Shown: piece by piece, positions 13,002 through 18,281 of the stretch
Position numbering within the stretch: position 1 is the stretch's first letter
Layout of the letters: each line of letters opens with the position of its first letter
Assembly (NCBI GenBank): GCA_017403185.1
Contig: JAFQON010000013.1
Span: forward strand, 1 to 64,000
From: Clostridia bacterium
Lineage (GTDB): Bacteria > Bacillota > Clostridia > Oscillospirales > Acutalibacteraceae
DNA length: 64,000 nt
Direction of reading: 5' to 3'
Translations under genes and position numbers: made by a program
Notes under the pieces: generated by a model
Seen by the model: only the letters and a program-made list of their open reading frames with translations
The model's database searches: none
What the model was told of the DNA's origin: nothing

Positions 13002-13214
13002 ATGAATTTGCGTATAAAAGATTTGCGGGAGGATAACGACCTTACGCAGAAGCAGATTGCCGAAATTTTGCTTTGCGACCAATCGCTTTATTCCAAATAC
13101 GAACGTAAAGAACGGGAAATTCCGTTGGCGTTAATTATAAAACTTGCAGATTACTATAATGTAAGTGTTGATTACCTTGTGGGCAGAACGAGCAACCCCA
13201 ATATTAATATTTGA
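13002..13214 (+). CDS. Small XRE-family helix-turn-helix regulator
   Basis: 70 residues, essentially one Cro/CI-type HTH domain (LREDNDLTQKQIAEIL, then a recognition helix SLYSKYERKEREIP). The tail DYYNVSVDYLVGRT is typical of short clostridial and phage-type repressors. There is no metal-binding or sensor domain. A weak GGTGAT ribosome site lies six bases before the ATG. It is divergent to the lipoprotein gene, and the twin operators lie between them. It probably represses both; the trigger is unknown. It is ended by the hairpin at 13219-13246. Confidence 0.88.
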   Translation: MNLRIKDLREDNDLTQKQIAEILLCDQSLYSKYERKEREIPLALIIKLADYYNVSVDYLVGRTSNPNINI

Positions 13215-13218
13215 TTTT

Positions 13219-13246
13219 AAAAGACAGCTTTTTCGAGCTGTCTTTT
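13219..13246 (+). terminator. Terminator of the XRE gene
   Basis: Perfect 11-base stem AAAAGACAGCT/AGCTGTCTTTT with a TTTTCG loop, starting five bases after the stop codon. Confidence 0.85.
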
Positions 13247-13298
13247 GTCATTTTGGACAAACAATGCTCACAATTTCAATTGTTTCTTTAACATTTTG

Positions 13299-13327
13299 TT
13301 GACATATAATAAATTATTTGATAAAAT
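13299..13327 (+). promoter_or_regulatory. Strong promoter of the SCP2/aminotransferase/transketolase operon
   Basis: Consensus -35 TTGACA (13299-13304), exactly 17 bases, then TAAAAT (13322-13327). The first gene starts at 13374 behind AAGGAGG. Confidence 0.8.
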
Positions 13328-13373
13328 AAATTGAATATCTTTAATCCTTTAATAAGATAAGGAGGAAATCGAA

Positions 13374-14132
13374 ATGATTGACCAGAAAACCTTGGCGTAC
13401 ATTAACCTGTACGGCGTGCTGGGTACTCTCGAAAACCTTTGCGAGCTTGCTCCCGAGGCACAGAGTATCCTCACAAACAAAAAGCCCATTTCAATCGGCT
13501 TCGATGTTAAGGGCGGCCCCAGTGCCACAATCACCTTTAACAACGGCAGATGCAGAATGGAACAGGGCTGCGCAAAGTGTGATGTCAAGCTTCCCTTCAG
13601 CTCATGTGAGAAGTTTAACGGACTTATTGACGGAACTGTTACACCCATCCCTTCAAAGGGCTTCCTTCACATCAAGTTCCTGCTTAACGATTTCACAAAG
13701 CTTACCGATTTGCTCAACAAGTATATGAGACCCGACCCCGCTGACCTTGAAGACCCTGATTTCTTCCGCATCAGCACTTCTCTTATGCTTTACACAATCA
13801 CCGTTGCAATCGCTCAGATAGGCAACAACGATGAAATCGGCAAGTTCTCGGCTGACCATATGGTTGACGGCGAAATTGCTTTCAGCATCAAGGACGGCCC
13901 CTCTTCAACAATCAGAGTTAAAAACCACAGACTTCTCGGCATCAAGAAGCCCTGCGAATCACCCAGAGCAATCATGGAATTCTCGAGCATTCAGCTTGCA
14001 AGAGACCTCTTTGACGGCAAGGTTAATGCAATTGCCTGCGTAGGCAGCGGCGATATCGTTATGAGAGGCATGATTTCAATGCTCGATAACCTTAACAGAA
14101 TTCTTGACAGAGTTGCTCTGTATTTAGCATAA
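13374..14132 (+). CDS. Tandem SCP2-like (sterol-carrier/lipid-transfer fold) protein
   Basis: 252 residues, no signal peptide. I read two SCP2-like halves. One is at about 36-118 (GFDVKGGPSATITFNNG, then KFNGLIDGTVTP). The clearer one is at about 160-250 (GEIAFSIKDGPSSTIRVKN, AIMEFSSIQLARDLFDGKVN, SGDIVMRG), which has the characteristic edge strands, a phenylalanine-rich helix and the conserved glycine-lysine turn. The SCP2 fold makes a hydrophobic tunnel for acyl chains or other lipids. The role is therefore probably binding or presenting a hydrophobic substrate; this is inference. It is the first gene of a five-gene operon whose last gene is a second such protein, with PLP and thiamine enzymes between them. 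AAGGAGG precedes the ATG. The family call is moderately sure, the double-domain reading less so. Confidence 0.65.
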   Translation: MIDQKTLAYINLYGVLGTLENLCELAPEAQSILTNKKPISIGFDVKGGPSATITFNNGRCRMEQGCAKCDVKLPFSSCEKFNGLIDGTVTPIPSKGFLHIKFLLNDFTKLTDLLNKYMRPDPADLEDPDFFRISTSLMLYTITVAIAQIGNNDEIGKFSADHMVDGEIAFSIKDGPSSTIRVKNHRLLGIKKPCESPRAIMEFSSIQLARDLFDGKVNAIACVGSGDIVMRGMISMLDNLNRILDRVALYLA

Positions 14133-14144
14133 GGAGGAAGAGAA

Positions 14145-15407
14145 ATGAGCATGAAAATTAATACACACGCAAAAAGTGCAGAGCTCTTCCAGAGAGCGGC
14201 AAAGGTTATCCCCTCGGGCCTTTACGGCCATCAGGGTCCCGCTGAAGGCTGCTGCATCCCCGTTTCGGCATACCCTCTTTTCAGCCAGAAGGCTCAGGGA
14301 TCATATTTCTGGGATGTTGACGGGAACAAATACATAGACTATATGTGCGCATACGGCCCCAATGTTCTCGGTTACAATGACCCCGATGTTGATGCGGCTG
14401 TTATGGAGCAGATGAAAATTGAAAACTGCGTTACCGCTCCTTCAACAAAGATTATCGAGTTTGCAGAGCTTATGGTTGACACCGTTGCATCGGCAGACTG
14501 GGCTTTCTTTGCAAAGAACGGCGGCGACACAACAACCGCTGCCATCATGACCGCAAGAGCAGCGACACATAAGAAAAAGATTATCTTCGTTAACGGCTAT
14601 TACCACGGCGTTGCTCCCTGGTGCCAGAAGATTGACTACCCCGGCGTTCTCCCCGAGGATGTAAAAAACAATCTTTATGTTGACTGGAACGATTTTGAAG
14701 GCCTCAAGAAGGTTGTTGAAGAAAACGAAGGCGAAATCGCCGCATTCATCTCAACTCCCTATATGCACGGCAACTTTGTTGATAACATTCTTCCTGCAGA
14801 AGGCTATTGGAAAAAGGTCCGTGACCTCTGCACGGAGAAGGGCATTGTTCTTATCATTGACGATGTTCGCTGCGGCTTCAGACTTGACCTTGCAGGCTCC
14901 GACCATTTCTACGGCATCGAGGCTGACCTTATCTGCTTCTGTAAGGCTCTTGCAAACGGCTGGAACGTTTCGGCTCTTTGCGGTAAGGATTGGCTCAAGA
15001 GCTCAATCAGCGGCCTTTCATACACAGGCAGCTATTGGATGAGCGCTGTTCCCTTCGCAGCGGCTATCGCTTGTATCAACAAGATGAAGGAAATCGACCT
15101 TCCCAAGATTTGCCTTGAAAAGGGCACAATGCTTACTGACGGTCTTAAGGCTGCGGCTGCAAACAACGGCTTCAACCTCAGCGTAACGGGCGAGCCCGCA
15201 CTCTTCTATCTCATGCTTAAGGATGACGATTCACTCATGCTTCATCAGGAGTGGATTGCAGAGGTTGTCAAGAGAGGCGTTTATATGACCAACCACCACA
15301 ACCACTTCATCAACGCTTCGCTTACAGACGAAGATGTGAAGCACACAATTGAAGTCGCTGAAGACGCATTCAAGGCTGTACGCAAGAATCATCCCGAACT
15401 CGGCTGA
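14145..15407 (+). CDS. Class III PLP-dependent aminotransferase (glutamate-1-semialdehyde aminomutase-like)
   Basis: 420 residues. Fold-type I, class III features: YFWDVDGNKYIDYMCAYG near residue 52, the PLP-contacting IIDDVRCGFR (Asp about 240) and FCKALANGWN with the Schiff-base lysine (about 267). It belongs with the GSAM-like branch, but no haem-pathway genes are present here. The N-terminal Gly-rich loop reads GLYGHQGPAEG. The enzyme should move an amino group onto a ketone or aldehyde, possibly the ketose made by the adjacent transketolase. AAGGAGG lies before the ATG, 12 bases after the first gene. The family is firm, the substrate unknown. Confidence 0.88.
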   Translation: MSMKINTHAKSAELFQRAAKVIPSGLYGHQGPAEGCCIPVSAYPLFSQKAQGSYFWDVDGNKYIDYMCAYGPNVLGYNDPDVDAAVMEQMKIENCVTAPSTKIIEFAELMVDTVASADWAFFAKNGGDTTTAAIMTARAATHKKKIIFVNGYYHGVAPWCQKIDYPGVLPEDVKNNLYVDWNDFEGLKKVVEENEGEIAAFISTPYMHGNFVDNILPAEGYWKKVRDLCTEKGIVLIIDDVRCGFRLDLAGSDHFYGIEADLICFCKALANGWNVSALCGKDWLKSSISGLSYTGSYWMSAVPFAAAIACINKMKEIDLPKICLEKGTMLTDGLKAAAANNGFNLSVTGEPALFYLMLKDDDSLMLHQEWIAEVVKRGVYMTNHHNHFINASLTDEDVKHTIEVAEDAFKAVRKNHPELG

Positions 15408-15440
15408 AATTAATTTTTATATATTAAGGAGGAATTTCTC

Positions 15441-16310
15441 ATGGCATTAACCAAGCAGGAATGGCTTGAGCTTGAAAAGCAGGCCAACGAGCTCCGTAAG
15501 CTCTGCCTCGATACCACCTATTGGGCAGGCAGTGCTCACATCGGCGGCGGTATGAGCGTTATGGATATGCTCACCATTCTCTATTACAAGTATATGAAGT
15601 ATGATGTTGCCAACCCCCAGTGGGAGGACAGAGACCGCTTCATTCTCAGCAAAGGTCACGCAGGCGTTGCGCTTGCAAGCCTTGTTTGTCATATCGGCTT
15701 TGATGACAAAGAAAAGCTCAAGACCTTCAACCTGAGCAACTCAACAATGGGCATTCACCTTGACTCAAACAAGGTTAAGGGCATCGACGCTTCAACAGGC
15801 TCACTCGGTCACGGTCTTTCAATCGCTCTCGGCACTGCTCTTGCAGCTAAAGTGCTCGGCAAGGATTACATGACATATTGCATCCTCGGCGACGGCGAAT
15901 GCGACGAAGGCTCAAACTGGGAAGCAGGTATGGCTGCCGCTCACTTCAAGGCAGACAACCTCATCGCTTTTGTTGACCGCAACAAGTGCATGATTGACGG
16001 CCCCACAGAGGAAGTTATGAAGCTTGAACCCCTTGCAGACAAGTGGCGTTCATTCGGCTTCGAGGTTATCGAGGTTGACGGTCACAACATGAACGCTCTT
16101 TCAGAGGCTATTGATGCAGCTCTTGCAATCAAAGAGAAGCCTGTTATGATTATCGCTGACACAATCAAGGGCGCAGGCGTTGATTACATGGAAGGCGACT
16201 ATAAGTGGCATTACGGCGCACTTAATGAAGAAAAATATGAGCTTGCAAAGGCAAGCCTTGAAAAATACTATGCACAGCGTGTAGCCCGTGCAGAAAAGGA
16301 GGGCATCTGA
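15441..16310 (+). CDS. Transketolase-like enzyme, N-terminal (thiamine-binding) subunit
   Basis: 289 residues, equivalent to the N-terminal half of transketolase. The thiamine diphosphate motif starts GDGECDEGSNWEAG and ends DRNK; SKGHAGVALASL and TGSLGHGLSIALG are also typical. Transketolases move a two-carbon ketol unit from a ketose to an aldehyde. The C-terminal half is encoded by the next gene, two bases downstream, so the two form an alpha2beta2-type enzyme. Split transketolases occur in many anaerobes, some in central metabolism and some in specialised pathways. The setting beside an aminotransferase and lipid-binding-type proteins favours a specialised role, but a pentose-phosphate role is not excluded. 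GGAGG precedes the ATG. Confidence 0.9.
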   Translation: MALTKQEWLELEKQANELRKLCLDTTYWAGSAHIGGGMSVMDMLTILYYKYMKYDVANPQWEDRDRFILSKGHAGVALASLVCHIGFDDKEKLKTFNLSNSTMGIHLDSNKVKGIDASTGSLGHGLSIALGTALAAKVLGKDYMTYCILGDGECDEGSNWEAGMAAAHFKADNLIAFVDRNKCMIDGPTEEVMKLEPLADKWRSFGFEVIEVDGHNMNALSEAIDAALAIKEKPVMIIADTIKGAGVDYMEGDYKWHYGALNEEKYELAKASLEKYYAQRVARAEKEGI

Positions 16311-16312
16311 TC

Positions 16313-17323
16313 ATGGCAGGAGGACTTACATATACCGCTACCGAATCAACCGCTTTCTCAACGGCTGAAATTTACGGTAAGGCTCTTTGTGAGCTTGGCG
16401 AAAAGCATCCTGAGGTTGTTGCTCTCACAGCCGACCTCGGCAAATCAACAAAAATCGGTATGTTCGGTGAGAAATTCCCCGACAGATACTTCAATGTAGG
16501 CATTGCAGAGCAGAATATGTTCGGTATGGCTGCAGGTATGGCAAGGGCAGGTCTTGTTCCCTTCCTTTCAACCTTCTCGGTTTTCGCTTCTCTCAGAAGT
16601 GCCGATCAGCTTCACACCGACATCTGCTACCAGAATGTTAACGCAAAAATCATCGCTACCCATGCAGGCACATCCTTCGGTCAGGCAGGCTCAACCCATC
16701 ACGCTATCTGCGATATGGCTGTTGCCCGTTCAATCCCCAACCTCACCGTTATCTGCCCTGCAGACGGTCTTGAAACATATAACGCAGTTCACGCTGCATA
16801 CGATAACTTCGGCCCCTACTACATCCGTATCAACAGAGGCTTTGACCGTGTTCTTTATGAGAATTCGGACTACGGCTTCGAAGTTGGTAAGGCTGTTACA
16901 ATCAACGAAGGCTCGGATATCACAATCATTGCCTGCGGTTCATGCGTATTCCAGGCATATCAGGCTGCAAAATTCCTTGAAACAAACGACGGTCTCAAGG
17001 TAAGAGTTCTCAATATGCACACCATCAAGCCCATTGATAAGGAAGCTATCATCAAGGCTGTTATGGAAACACGCCGCATCATCACCGCTGAAGACCACAA
17101 CATTCTCGGCGGTCTCGGCTCAGCAGTTGCTGAAGTTATCGTTGAAGCAGGTAAGGGCTGTGCATTCAAGCAGCTCGGTATCCCCGACAAGTTTGCACCC
17201 ATCGGTCTCCACGAGGATATCATGTCCACCCTCGGCATCGACCAGAACGGCATTATTGCAGCTGTTCGTGAAGTTATGGGTAAGGACTTCGAGCTCGACG
17301 ACGACTGGGATGACGAAGCTTAA
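16313..17323 (+). CDS. Transketolase-like enzyme, C-terminal (pyrimidine-binding) subunit
   Basis: 336 residues: the pyrimidine-binding domain (about 15-180) with the essential glutamate in NVGIAEQNMFGMAAGMA, then the C-terminal transketolase domain (about 200-320) with HTIKPID and AEDHNILGG. It lacks the N-terminal domain, which the preceding gene supplies. It starts two bases after that gene's stop, with its ribosome site (AAAGGAGGG) inside the preceding coding end, so translation is coupled. A palindromic element (17324-17400) follows before the fifth gene. Confidence 0.9.
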   Translation: MAGGLTYTATESTAFSTAEIYGKALCELGEKHPEVVALTADLGKSTKIGMFGEKFPDRYFNVGIAEQNMFGMAAGMARAGLVPFLSTFSVFASLRSADQLHTDICYQNVNAKIIATHAGTSFGQAGSTHHAICDMAVARSIPNLTVICPADGLETYNAVHAAYDNFGPYYIRINRGFDRVLYENSDYGFEVGKAVTINEGSDITIIACGSCVFQAYQAAKFLETNDGLKVRVLNMHTIKPIDKEAIIKAVMETRRIITAEDHNILGGLGSAVAEVIVEAGKGCAFKQLGIPDKFAPIGLHEDIMSTLGIDQNGIIAAVREVMGKDFELDDDWDDEA

Positions 17324-17400
17324 TTTGAGTTCTTTTCACTTTCTCGCTCGTTGCGTATAACGATACGCGTCCTCGCTGCGAAAGCGAAAATAATCTCAAA
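17324..17400. repeat. 77-base palindromic element (REP-like hairpin)
   Basis: Long imperfect inverted repeat: TTTGAG at one end and CTCAAA at the other, nearly matching inner arms (TTTTCACTTTCTCGC against GCGAAAGCGAAAA) and a perfect core GCGTAT-AACG-ATACGC (17353-17368). It begins directly after a stop codon inside an operon. It may weaken read-through into the last gene or be a mobile palindromic repeat. It has no good U-tract. Confidence 0.6.
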
Positions 17401-17437
17401 TTCTGAAACCTAATACTAACCGAAAGGAATGATTTAT

Positions 17438-18244
17438 ATGGCTTCAAGAGAAGACATTCTGACCAATAAAATTTTCCTTTGTGCGGTTCTGCCCCTTATC
17501 AAAACCATTGCTATGGATGACCCCAAGCTTGCCAAGAAATTTGAGCACGCTCATGCGGTTATTCAGGTGAGCGCAAAAGACCCCGATTCGCCCGACGGCA
17601 AGTTTGCAACTCATTTTGTTGTTAACAGCGGCGAGTGGATTTGCCACACCGATAAGGTTGCCACCAATGCTCACATTGAGCTTGAGTTCAAGAGCATTGA
17701 AACAATGAACGCATTCTTCAAAGGAAAAATCGGCCCCTCAACTCTCCCCGCAATGAAGGGCGTTGCAAAGAAACCTGCAGTTTTTGCTGCGTTTATGATG
17801 ACTCTTCTCAAAATGTCCTCACTTCTCACGGCTACCGAAGCTCCTGAGGATGAAGAGGGCAAGAGATTGCTTGTTAAATGCTATTTCTACCTGCTTTCAA
17901 GCGGCATAAGCACACTCAACAAGCAGGGTCACGAAGAGATTCACAACTGGACTCTCAAGAGCCCCGACAGAGTTTATGCCTGGGCAGTTAACGGCTACCC
18001 CGAGATTTCGGCATATATCCGCATCAAGGCGGGCAAGTCAAAGGCGGGCAGAGGCGTTTACAAGCGTGCTCTTCCCTTCTTCACCATGAGATTTGACAGC
18101 CTTGACAGTGCACTCGGTATTCTTATGGGTACTGCAGATATGCTTGAATTCACCAAGACGGGCAAGCTTATCATGGACGGCGCACCCGAATTCGGCGCAG
18201 AAATCGGCAACTACATGATGATGGTCGGCGACTACGCAAGATAA
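17438..18244 (+). CDS. Second tandem SCP2-like protein
   Basis: 268 residues from the ATG at 17438. An ATG three codons earlier abuts the AAAGGA site and is less likely. Like the first gene of the operon it shows two SCP2-type halves: about 40-125 (FATHFVVNSGEWICHTDK, then IETMNAFFKGKIGPST) and about 180-265 (AYIRIKAGKSKAG, TMRFDSLDSALGILMGTAD, GKLIMDG). A helical insert lies between them. There is no signal peptide. The shared architecture with the 13374-14132 product suggests both handle hydrophobic intermediates of the pathway; the two differ enough in sequence to have separate ligands. It ends at the terminator 18248-18279. Confidence 0.6.
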   Translation: MASREDILTNKIFLCAVLPLIKTIAMDDPKLAKKFEHAHAVIQVSAKDPDSPDGKFATHFVVNSGEWICHTDKVATNAHIELEFKSIETMNAFFKGKIGPSTLPAMKGVAKKPAVFAAFMMTLLKMSSLLTATEAPEDEEGKRLLVKCYFYLLSSGISTLNKQGHEEIHNWTLKSPDRVYAWAVNGYPEISAYIRIKAGKSKAGRGVYKRALPFFTMRFDSLDSALGILMGTADMLEFTKTGKLIMDGAPEFGAEIGNYMMMVGDYAR

Positions 18245-18247
18245 ATA

Positions 18248-18279
18248 AAAAAACGGTCTGCAGATGCAGGCCGTTTTTT
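18248..18279 (+). terminator. Terminator of the SCP2/aminotransferase/transketolase operon
   Basis: A 15-base stem with one G-T pair (18248-18262, 18265-18279), two-base loop and a run of seven T, three bases after the stop. Confidence 0.88.
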
Positions 18280-18281
18280 TA

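What the first reader, a model, noticed from the sequence alone, without database searches (positions are those of the whole stretch)
13299..18279. Operon pairing two double SCP2-like proteins with a class III aminotransferase and a split transketolase: possible SPT-independent route to sphingoid-type amino-diols
Seen: one consensus promoter, five tightly spaced genes and one terminator. The outer genes encode SCP2-like proteins (each apparently two domains); the inner three encode a class III PLP aminotransferase and both halves of a transketolase. Known: transketolase adds a C2 ketol to an aldehyde to give a 1,3-dihydroxy-2-ketone, class III transaminases convert ketones to amines, and SCP2 folds bind acyl chains. 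Inference: with a fatty aldehyde as acceptor the two reactions yield R-CHOH-CHNH2-CH2OH, the sphinganine headgroup, without serine palmitoyltransferase. The alternative is an amino-sugar or other small amino-polyol pathway.
Basis: partly seen in the sequence, partly recalled or inferred. Interest (0 to 1): 0.75.

Follow-up and report, generated by a model that had tools for sequence, protein, structure and literature searches.

The report
Lipid-type transketolase–aminotransferase gut operon
Gut bacteria carry a conserved five-gene operon whose two enzymes and two carrier-type proteins look built to break down (or possibly make) sphingosine-like amino-lipids by an unusual route, though no activity has been measured.

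Summary
In detail: one promoter, five genes, one terminator at 13299-18281. The order SCP2-like protein, FumI-type aminotransferase, two transketolase halves, second SCP2-like protein is kept in 63 of 80 named loci; 10 more are cut by contig ends and 7 show only the SCP-aminotransferase pair. In three genomes it is split into SCP-aminotransferase and transketolase-SCP loci.

New evidence favours a long-chain substrate. The aminotransferase groups with FumI, which deaminates the sphingoid analogue hydrolysed fumonisin B1. The transketolase is not the housekeeping one; it keeps its catalytic residues but has lost the Asp/Arg pair of the acceptor pocket in all 75 and 78 distinct sequences counted. 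A sister system lacks the aminotransferase and has a zinc alcohol dehydrogenase and, in one of three loci, an ALDH3-family gene.

Synthesis remains possible. There is no assay, structure or lipid evidence, and stereochemistry is an open problem.

The parts
13299..13327 (+). sigma-70-like promoter TTGACA-17-TAAAAT with extended -10
   Evidence: 11 of 12 matches
13374..14132 (+). SCPa: double SCP2-like protein, partner of the aminotransferase
   Evidence: the same 4 of 293 class genomes (own included) carry SCPa and AT
14145..15407 (+). FumI-type class III PLP aminotransferase (putative catalytic Lys267)
15441..16310 (+). TKa: ThDP-binding half of a split transketolase; acceptor-pocket Arg (human R101 / E. 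coli R91) is Asn
16313..17323 (+). TKb: pyrimidine/C-terminal half; human D424 (E. coli D469) is Ala, human R318 is Ala
17438..18244 (+). SCPb: second double SCP2-like protein, partner of the transketolase (start at 17429 also possible)
18246..18281 (+). intrinsic terminator hairpin with T run

Best explanation
The operon encodes a two-step breakdown route for long-chain 2-amino-1,3-diols (sphingoid bases or close analogues). Step 1: the FumI-type aminotransferase, served by SCPa, moves the 2-amino group to a keto acid and leaves a long-chain 1,3-dihydroxy-2-ketone. Step 2: the split transketolase, served by SCPb, removes C1-C2 as a ThDP-bound ketol, releases a fatty aldehyde and passes the ketol to an aldose phosphate of the pentose-phosphate pool. 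Shown: gene content, conservation, pairing of each SCP2-like protein with its enzyme, FumI relationship, retained catalytic residues, lost Asp/Arg acceptor-pocket pair. Inferred: lipid substrate, carrier role of the SCP proteins, direction, exact headgroup.
For: AT: 301 bits to FumI against 161 to the next PDB match; FumI falls with the ten operon-type ATs in a 16-sequence tree (84/100); 28 positions are shared by FumI and all ten ATs and by none of four comparison enzymes, a gap counting as absent. FumI deaminates hydrolysed fumonisin B1 with pyruvate (PMC2933618, passages). TK: group apart from 7 housekeeping pairs; D424A and E423Q in 75 of 75, R101N in 78 of 78 distinct sequences; Glu366, His37/77/110/258, Asp155 and Asn185 equivalents all kept. 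E. coli D469T is called propanal-accepting and gives a hydrophobic surface for non-polar acceptors (PMC10787763, passages); D469 salt-bridges R91 (PMC5073344, passages). Modules: SCPa goes with AT and SCPb with TK even when unlinked, in G021, G035 and G542. Sister loci: TKa-TKb-SCPb-ADH-MerR in 3 of 3, plus an ALDH3-family gene in one (411 bits to human fatty aldehyde dehydrogenase); their TKs share D424A and R101N. TetR genes lie downstream of the operon in G300, G541 and G682 (Pfam TetR_N shown for G300 and G541).
Against: No assay, structure or lipid data. The own genome shows no ALDH3-type enzyme: its one full aldehyde dehydrogenase is of the methylmalonate-semialdehyde type (the second, two-piece match I take from recall to be ProA). 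The ALDH3 gene is in one of three sister loci; its best NCBIfam model is benzaldehyde dehydrogenase MdlD, below cut-off. SCPa-AT stands without a neighbouring TK in several loci, and G095 and G360, 2 of 4 class carriers of SCPa-AT, show no SCPb at all. Two transketolase-like pairs without SCPb also have odd residues at these places. Three of four phosphate-site residues are kept. SPT-made sphingoids are 2S,3R (PMC6148460, passage), while known transketolases handle the 3S, D-xylulose-like form (recalled). Carriage by 42 of 44 same-genus relatives could mean a core biosynthetic role.
Confidence: 0.42

Rival explanations
1. Synthesis direction: the transketolase adds a C2 ketol to a fatty aldehyde and the aminotransferase aminates the product, giving sphinganine-type amino-diols without serine palmitoyltransferase.
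For: Same enzymes and partners; no alpha-oxoamine synthase beyond 21 bits in the own genome; near-core presence in the genus; no transporter among the five genes; transketolase-transaminase cascades are an established synthetic route to chiral amino-alcohols (PMC5813273, abstract start and passages).
Against: No neighbour gene family is shared by more than 10 of 80 loci, so no linked supplier of aldehyde or acyltransferase stands out (neighbours were clustered, not annotated). FumI and DesAB act in breakdown; the sister system holds ADH genes and one ALDH3; SCPa-AT occurs without TK.
Confidence: 0.25
2. Small amino-polyol or amino-sugar pathway: both enzymes act on short, water-soluble substrates and the SCP2-like proteins are not lipid carriers.
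For: S345, H416 and R474 (human numbers) are kept in 75 of 75; in G021 the SCPa-AT pair follows D-glutamate cyclase, carboxyltransferase and alanine racemase genes and precedes a PALP gene, which also follows it in G035; the sister ADH resembles polyol dehydrogenases.
Against: Loss of the Asp and Arg of the acceptor pocket and of R318; FumI relationship; two separate SCP2-like proteins kept with the two enzymes; ALDH3 in one sister locus.
Confidence: 0.18
3. Steroid side-chain enzyme of the DesAB (steroid-17,20-desmolase) kind, with SCP2-like sterol carriers.
For: DesAB is a split transketolase in an operon with a zinc dehydrogenase, and its C2 unit is proposed to feed the pentose-phosphate pathway (PMC3735941, passages); the sister loci also hold a zinc dehydrogenase.
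Against: DesA is on average 28% identical to TktA (PMC12876203, passage), whereas the operon TK is 45% identical to its own housekeeping pair; no desC- or desD-like gene in the window operon; an aminotransferase has no obvious role. DesAB sequences were not held, so no direct comparison was made.
Confidence: 0.05
4. A second ordinary pentose-phosphate transketolase that happens to sit with unrelated genes.
For: All catalytic residues checked are kept.
Against: Order conserved in 63 of 80 loci, and all five genes found at 29-65% identity in G541, G682 and G761; modules co-occur when unlinked; constant pocket change; separate housekeeping pair in the genome.
Confidence: 0.05

Closest known systems
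FumI, aminopentol (hydrolysed fumonisin B1) aminotransferase, PDB 6hbs
   Same: Groups together in the tree; 38% identity; 28 shared diagnostic positions; FumI acts on a long-chain 2-amino polyol
   Different: FumI's substrate has no 1-hydroxyl; no transketolase or SCP2-like partner is named in the passages I saw
DesAB steroid-17,20-desmolase of Clostridium scindens
   Same: Split transketolase proposed to cut a C2 ketol from a lipid, with a redox partner acting at the ketone (PMC3735941, passages)
   Different: Different partner genes and presumably substrate: here an aminotransferase and SCP2-like proteins; sequences not compared
Carboxydothermus split transketolase (PDB 6yaj/6yak) and housekeeping split transketolases
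   Same: Same two-chain make-up and catalytic residues
   Different: Operon TK lacks the D424/R101 pair and R318 (human numbers) and lies in its own group
Serine palmitoyltransferase and sphingosine-1-phosphate lyase
   Same: Would enter or leave the same long-chain-base pool
   Different: Chemistry here would be transamination plus ketol transfer
Engineered transketolase-transaminase cascades (PMC5813273)
   Same: Same two reaction types giving amino-alcohols
   Different: Laboratory construct making 2-amino-1,3,4-butanetriol, no carrier proteins

Membership tests
FumI-type aminotransferase | Class III sequence with catalytic Lys and FumI as closest solved relative | tested here: met
   301 vs 161 bits; Lys267 in 93 of 93 distinct sequences; falls with FumI (84/100), FumI branch long and its exact place unsure
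FumI-type aminotransferase | Deamination of a long-chain 2-amino polyol | not testable with these tools
   needs an enzyme assay
Transketolase | ThDP-site, catalytic Glu and active-site His residues | tested here: met
   75 of 75 (TKb) and 78 of 78 (TKa) distinct sequences
Sugar-phosphate (pentose-phosphate) transketolase | Acceptor and phosphate residues D424, R101, R318 (human numbers) | tested here: not met
   Ala, Asn and Ala/Ser/Thr in all copies counted; kept in 7 of 7 housekeeping pairs; S345, H416, R474 are kept in the operon copies
DesAB steroid-17,20-desmolase | Operon with desC and desD | tested here: not met
   no such gene among the five
DesAB steroid-17,20-desmolase | Sequence clade with DesAB | not tested
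   DesAB sequences not held
SCP2 family (PF02036) | Score above the curated cut-off | tested here: inconclusive
   window SCPa 20.3 of 21.3, SCPb none; 4 of 7 distant relatives above cut-off, 3 of 7 without a match
SCP2 family (PF02036) | Hydrophobic ligand tunnel | not testable with these tools
   structure prediction switched off
Sphingolipid synthesis by serine palmitoyltransferase | Alpha-oxoamine synthase gene in the genome | tested here: not met
   best TIGR01825 match 21.4 bits over 119 of 385 positions; genome 80% complete; relatives not searched
Sphingosine-1-phosphate lyase route | S1P lyase gene | not tested

The most novel reading that the evidence does not exclude
A natural transamination-plus-ketol-transfer pathway for sphingoid-type amino-diols in gut anaerobes, independent of both serine palmitoyltransferase and sphingosine-1-phosphate lyase, in which each enzyme has its own double-SCP2 lipid presenter; a sister version replaces the aminotransferase by an alcohol dehydrogenase and treats a hydroxylated, non-amino headgroup.
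Probability: 0.5. Interest if true: 0.85.

Novelty: new variant of a known kind. Interest (0 to 1): 0.7.

Why it matters
[quoted passage not shown] A widespread gut operon that enters or leaves the pool by transamination and ketol transfer would add another door, tie lipid breakdown to the pentose-phosphate pathway, and offer enzymes for fumonisin-like toxins and for making amino-diols. I saw nothing on such an operon in the listings of six searches of the held open-licence library, of which longer hit lists were shown only in part.

Tried and rejected
Rejected: ordinary housekeeping transketolase (own group, second pair in genome). Glutamate-1-semialdehyde aminomutase, the model that NCBIfam comes nearest to (233 bits, cut-off 398): FumI is far closer. 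A conserved extra neighbour as a clue: no family of ORFs of 90 aa or more occurs in more than 10 of 80 loci. Led nowhere: PMC7910519 on sphinganine in gut bacteria (none of six terms tried occurs); rumen fumonisin breakdown, PMC7590051 (passages: reports inconsistent, no metabolite identified); PDB profile searches with the SCP alignments (nothing meaningful).

Not done: searches for S1P lyase, ceramidases and acyltransferases in carriers; serine palmitoyltransferase beyond the own genome; comparison with DesAB; any structure.
Full report
OBSERVATION. The window lies in a 2.40 Mb draft genome, 80.3% complete; close named matches are Oscillospiraceae/Clostridia bins, many with herbivore-gut sample names. 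The operon is as described: promoter-like site 13299-13327, five + strand genes, terminator hairpin 18246-18281. Gaps are 12, 33 and 2 bases, then 105-114 before the last gene. Pfam gives Aminotran_3, Transketolase_N and Transket_pyr/Transketolase_C for the inner three; SCPa is just under the SCP2 cut-off and SCPb has no match. SCPa and SCPb profiles match each other; SCPa is an internal duplication, while the halves of SCPb show no detectable homology. Of 7 distant SCP proteins tested, 4 pass the SCP2 cut-off, including both of operon L174, and 3 give no match.

CONSERVATION. Of 99 genomes (own included), 49 hold the aminotransferase at E 1e-60 or better, among them 42 of 44 same-genus relatives. 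Of the two without it, G003 has TKb-SCPb at a contig end and G033, 75% complete, shows neither AT nor SCPb. Of 19 longer loci fetched around the AT, 16 show all five genes in order and 3 only SCPa-AT. All five genes occur in order in 63 of these 80 (the last gene cut in some); 10 are cut by a contig end; 7 show SCPa-AT only, of which L134 stops at the contig end and L131 close to it. Named hosts include Treponema, Lachnospiraceae and bins called Propionibacteriaceae and Bifidobacteriaceae; bins can be contaminated.

TWO MODULES. In G021 and G035, SCPa-AT and TKa-TKb-SCPb lie at different places, as they do in the distant genome G542. Among 293 class genomes (own included, at least 90% complete asked for), SCPa and AT occur in the same 4. 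SCPb occurs in 5: G000 and G300 with SCPa-AT, and G130, G200 and G259 without. Two of the 4 SCPa-AT carriers, G095 and G360, show no SCPb. Among 398 phylum genomes, SCPb occurs in 5, all with SCPa and AT; AT itself was not searched in that set. So AT never lacks SCPa in these samples and SCPb always lies beside the transketolase, but SCPa-AT can occur alone.

SISTER SYSTEM. G130, G200 (one genus) and G259 (another family) hold TKa-TKb-SCPb, then a zinc alcohol dehydrogenase and a MerR regulator (Pfam-tested in G130 and G259). G259 adds an ALDH3-family aldehyde dehydrogenase: best PDB match 6k0z 474 bits, ALDH3A1 414, human fatty aldehyde dehydrogenase 411, benzaldehyde dehydrogenase 376, other classes 260 or less; its best NCBIfam model is benzaldehyde dehydrogenase, below cut-off. 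A dehydrogenase in the aminotransferase's place makes sense if both set the ketone beside the bond that the transketolase cuts. This is inference.

AMINOTRANSFERASE. Best solved relative FumI, 301 bits; next 161. In a 16-sequence tree FumI falls with the ten operon-type ATs (84/100) and apart from aminomutase-type enzymes; its exact place among the deepest ATs is unsure and its branch long. Twenty-eight positions are shared by FumI and all ten ATs and not by four comparison enzymes; a gap there counted as absent. FumI turns hydrolysed fumonisin B1 and pyruvate into the 2-keto compound and alanine (PMC2933618, passages).

TRANSKETOLASE. A separate split pair lies on another contig and is closer to the Carboxydothermus enzyme (TKb 377 against 270 bits). 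In a 25-sequence tree the SCPb-linked transketolases form a group (94/95) apart from seven housekeeping pairs. Over 75 distinct TKb and 78 distinct TKa sequences the catalytic residues checked are unchanged, while D424 is Ala and E423 Gln in 75 of 75, R318 Ala/Ser/Thr in 75 of 75 and R101 Asn in 78 of 78 (human numbers). These sequences come from the loci; incomplete copies and copies with stops were left out. Deeper relatives: G541 has Gly at 318; the sister loci and G542 keep R318; all share D424A and R101N where checked. Seven of seven housekeeping pairs keep R318, D424 and R101. Two other pairs without SCPb (G053, G095) also differ at some of these places, so such changes alone do not prove a lipid substrate. 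In E. coli, D469 salt-bridges R91 (PMC5073344, passages) and D469T is called propanal-accepting with a hydrophobic surface for non-polar acceptors (PMC10787763, passages). The kept H110 (E. coli H100) suggests that a hydroxylated ketol is still handled; H100L was one of the changes used for pyruvate (same paper).

MECHANISM AND DIRECTION. Both reactions are reversible in principle. For breakdown: FumI and DesAB act in breakdown; one sister locus holds an aldehyde oxidiser; TetR genes lie downstream of the operon in G541 and G682 (one genus) and, three to four genes on, in G300; MerR genes lie in the sister loci; SCPa-AT can stand alone. For synthesis: near-universal presence in the genus, no transporter among the five genes, and no alpha-oxoamine synthase beyond 21 bits in the own genome. 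Against oxidation of a fatty aldehyde in this very genome: its one full aldehyde dehydrogenase is of the methylmalonate-semialdehyde type. Against either: SPT-made sphingoids are 2S,3R (PMC6148460, passage), while known transketolases handle the 3S form (recalled), so altered stereochoice or another isomer would be needed.

COMPARISON. It works most like DesAB, a split transketolase proposed to remove a two-carbon ketol from a steroid and feed it to the pentose-phosphate pathway (PMC3735941, passages), combined with FumI-type deamination. It is not filed as DesAB: the operon partners differ and the sequences could not be compared.

VERDICT. Real, conserved and not housekeeping. No function has been measured.

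Noticed in passing
window 13002-13214 and 13218-13247: A 70-codon helix-turn-helix-like gene (judged by eye), followed by a strong hairpin, lies just upstream of the operon promoter; its conservation was not tested.
   Followed up: no
window 17322-17403: The TKb-SCPb spacer holds a stable hairpin (z -2.9 for 17320-17440), and this spacer runs from about 20 to 700 bases in relatives; possible attenuation of the last gene.
   Followed up: no
L040 7662-17776; L041 5717-8032: In G021 SCPa-AT follows class IV aminotransferase, D-glutamate cyclase, carboxyltransferase, LamB/YcsF and alanine racemase genes and precedes a PALP gene; in G035 a PALP and a PfkB gene follow.
   Followed up: partly
L156 4665-8134: In G300 the operon is followed by a VOC protein, an old-yellow-enzyme flavoprotein nearest to BaiCD (below cut-off) and a TetR regulator.
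   Followed up: partly
L155 1195-2574: A glutamate 2,3-aminomutase gene (above cut-off) lies upstream of the transketolase-SCP-ADH-MerR-ALDH3 cluster in G259.
   Followed up: no
L157 8059-9285: The aminotransferase of G360 is reported with two in-frame TGA codons: broken gene, sequencing error or recoding.
   Followed up: no
L164 and L165: Two further split transketolase-like pairs (G095, G053) with unusual residues at the acceptor site; only the transketolase residues were looked at, function unknown.
   Followed up: partly
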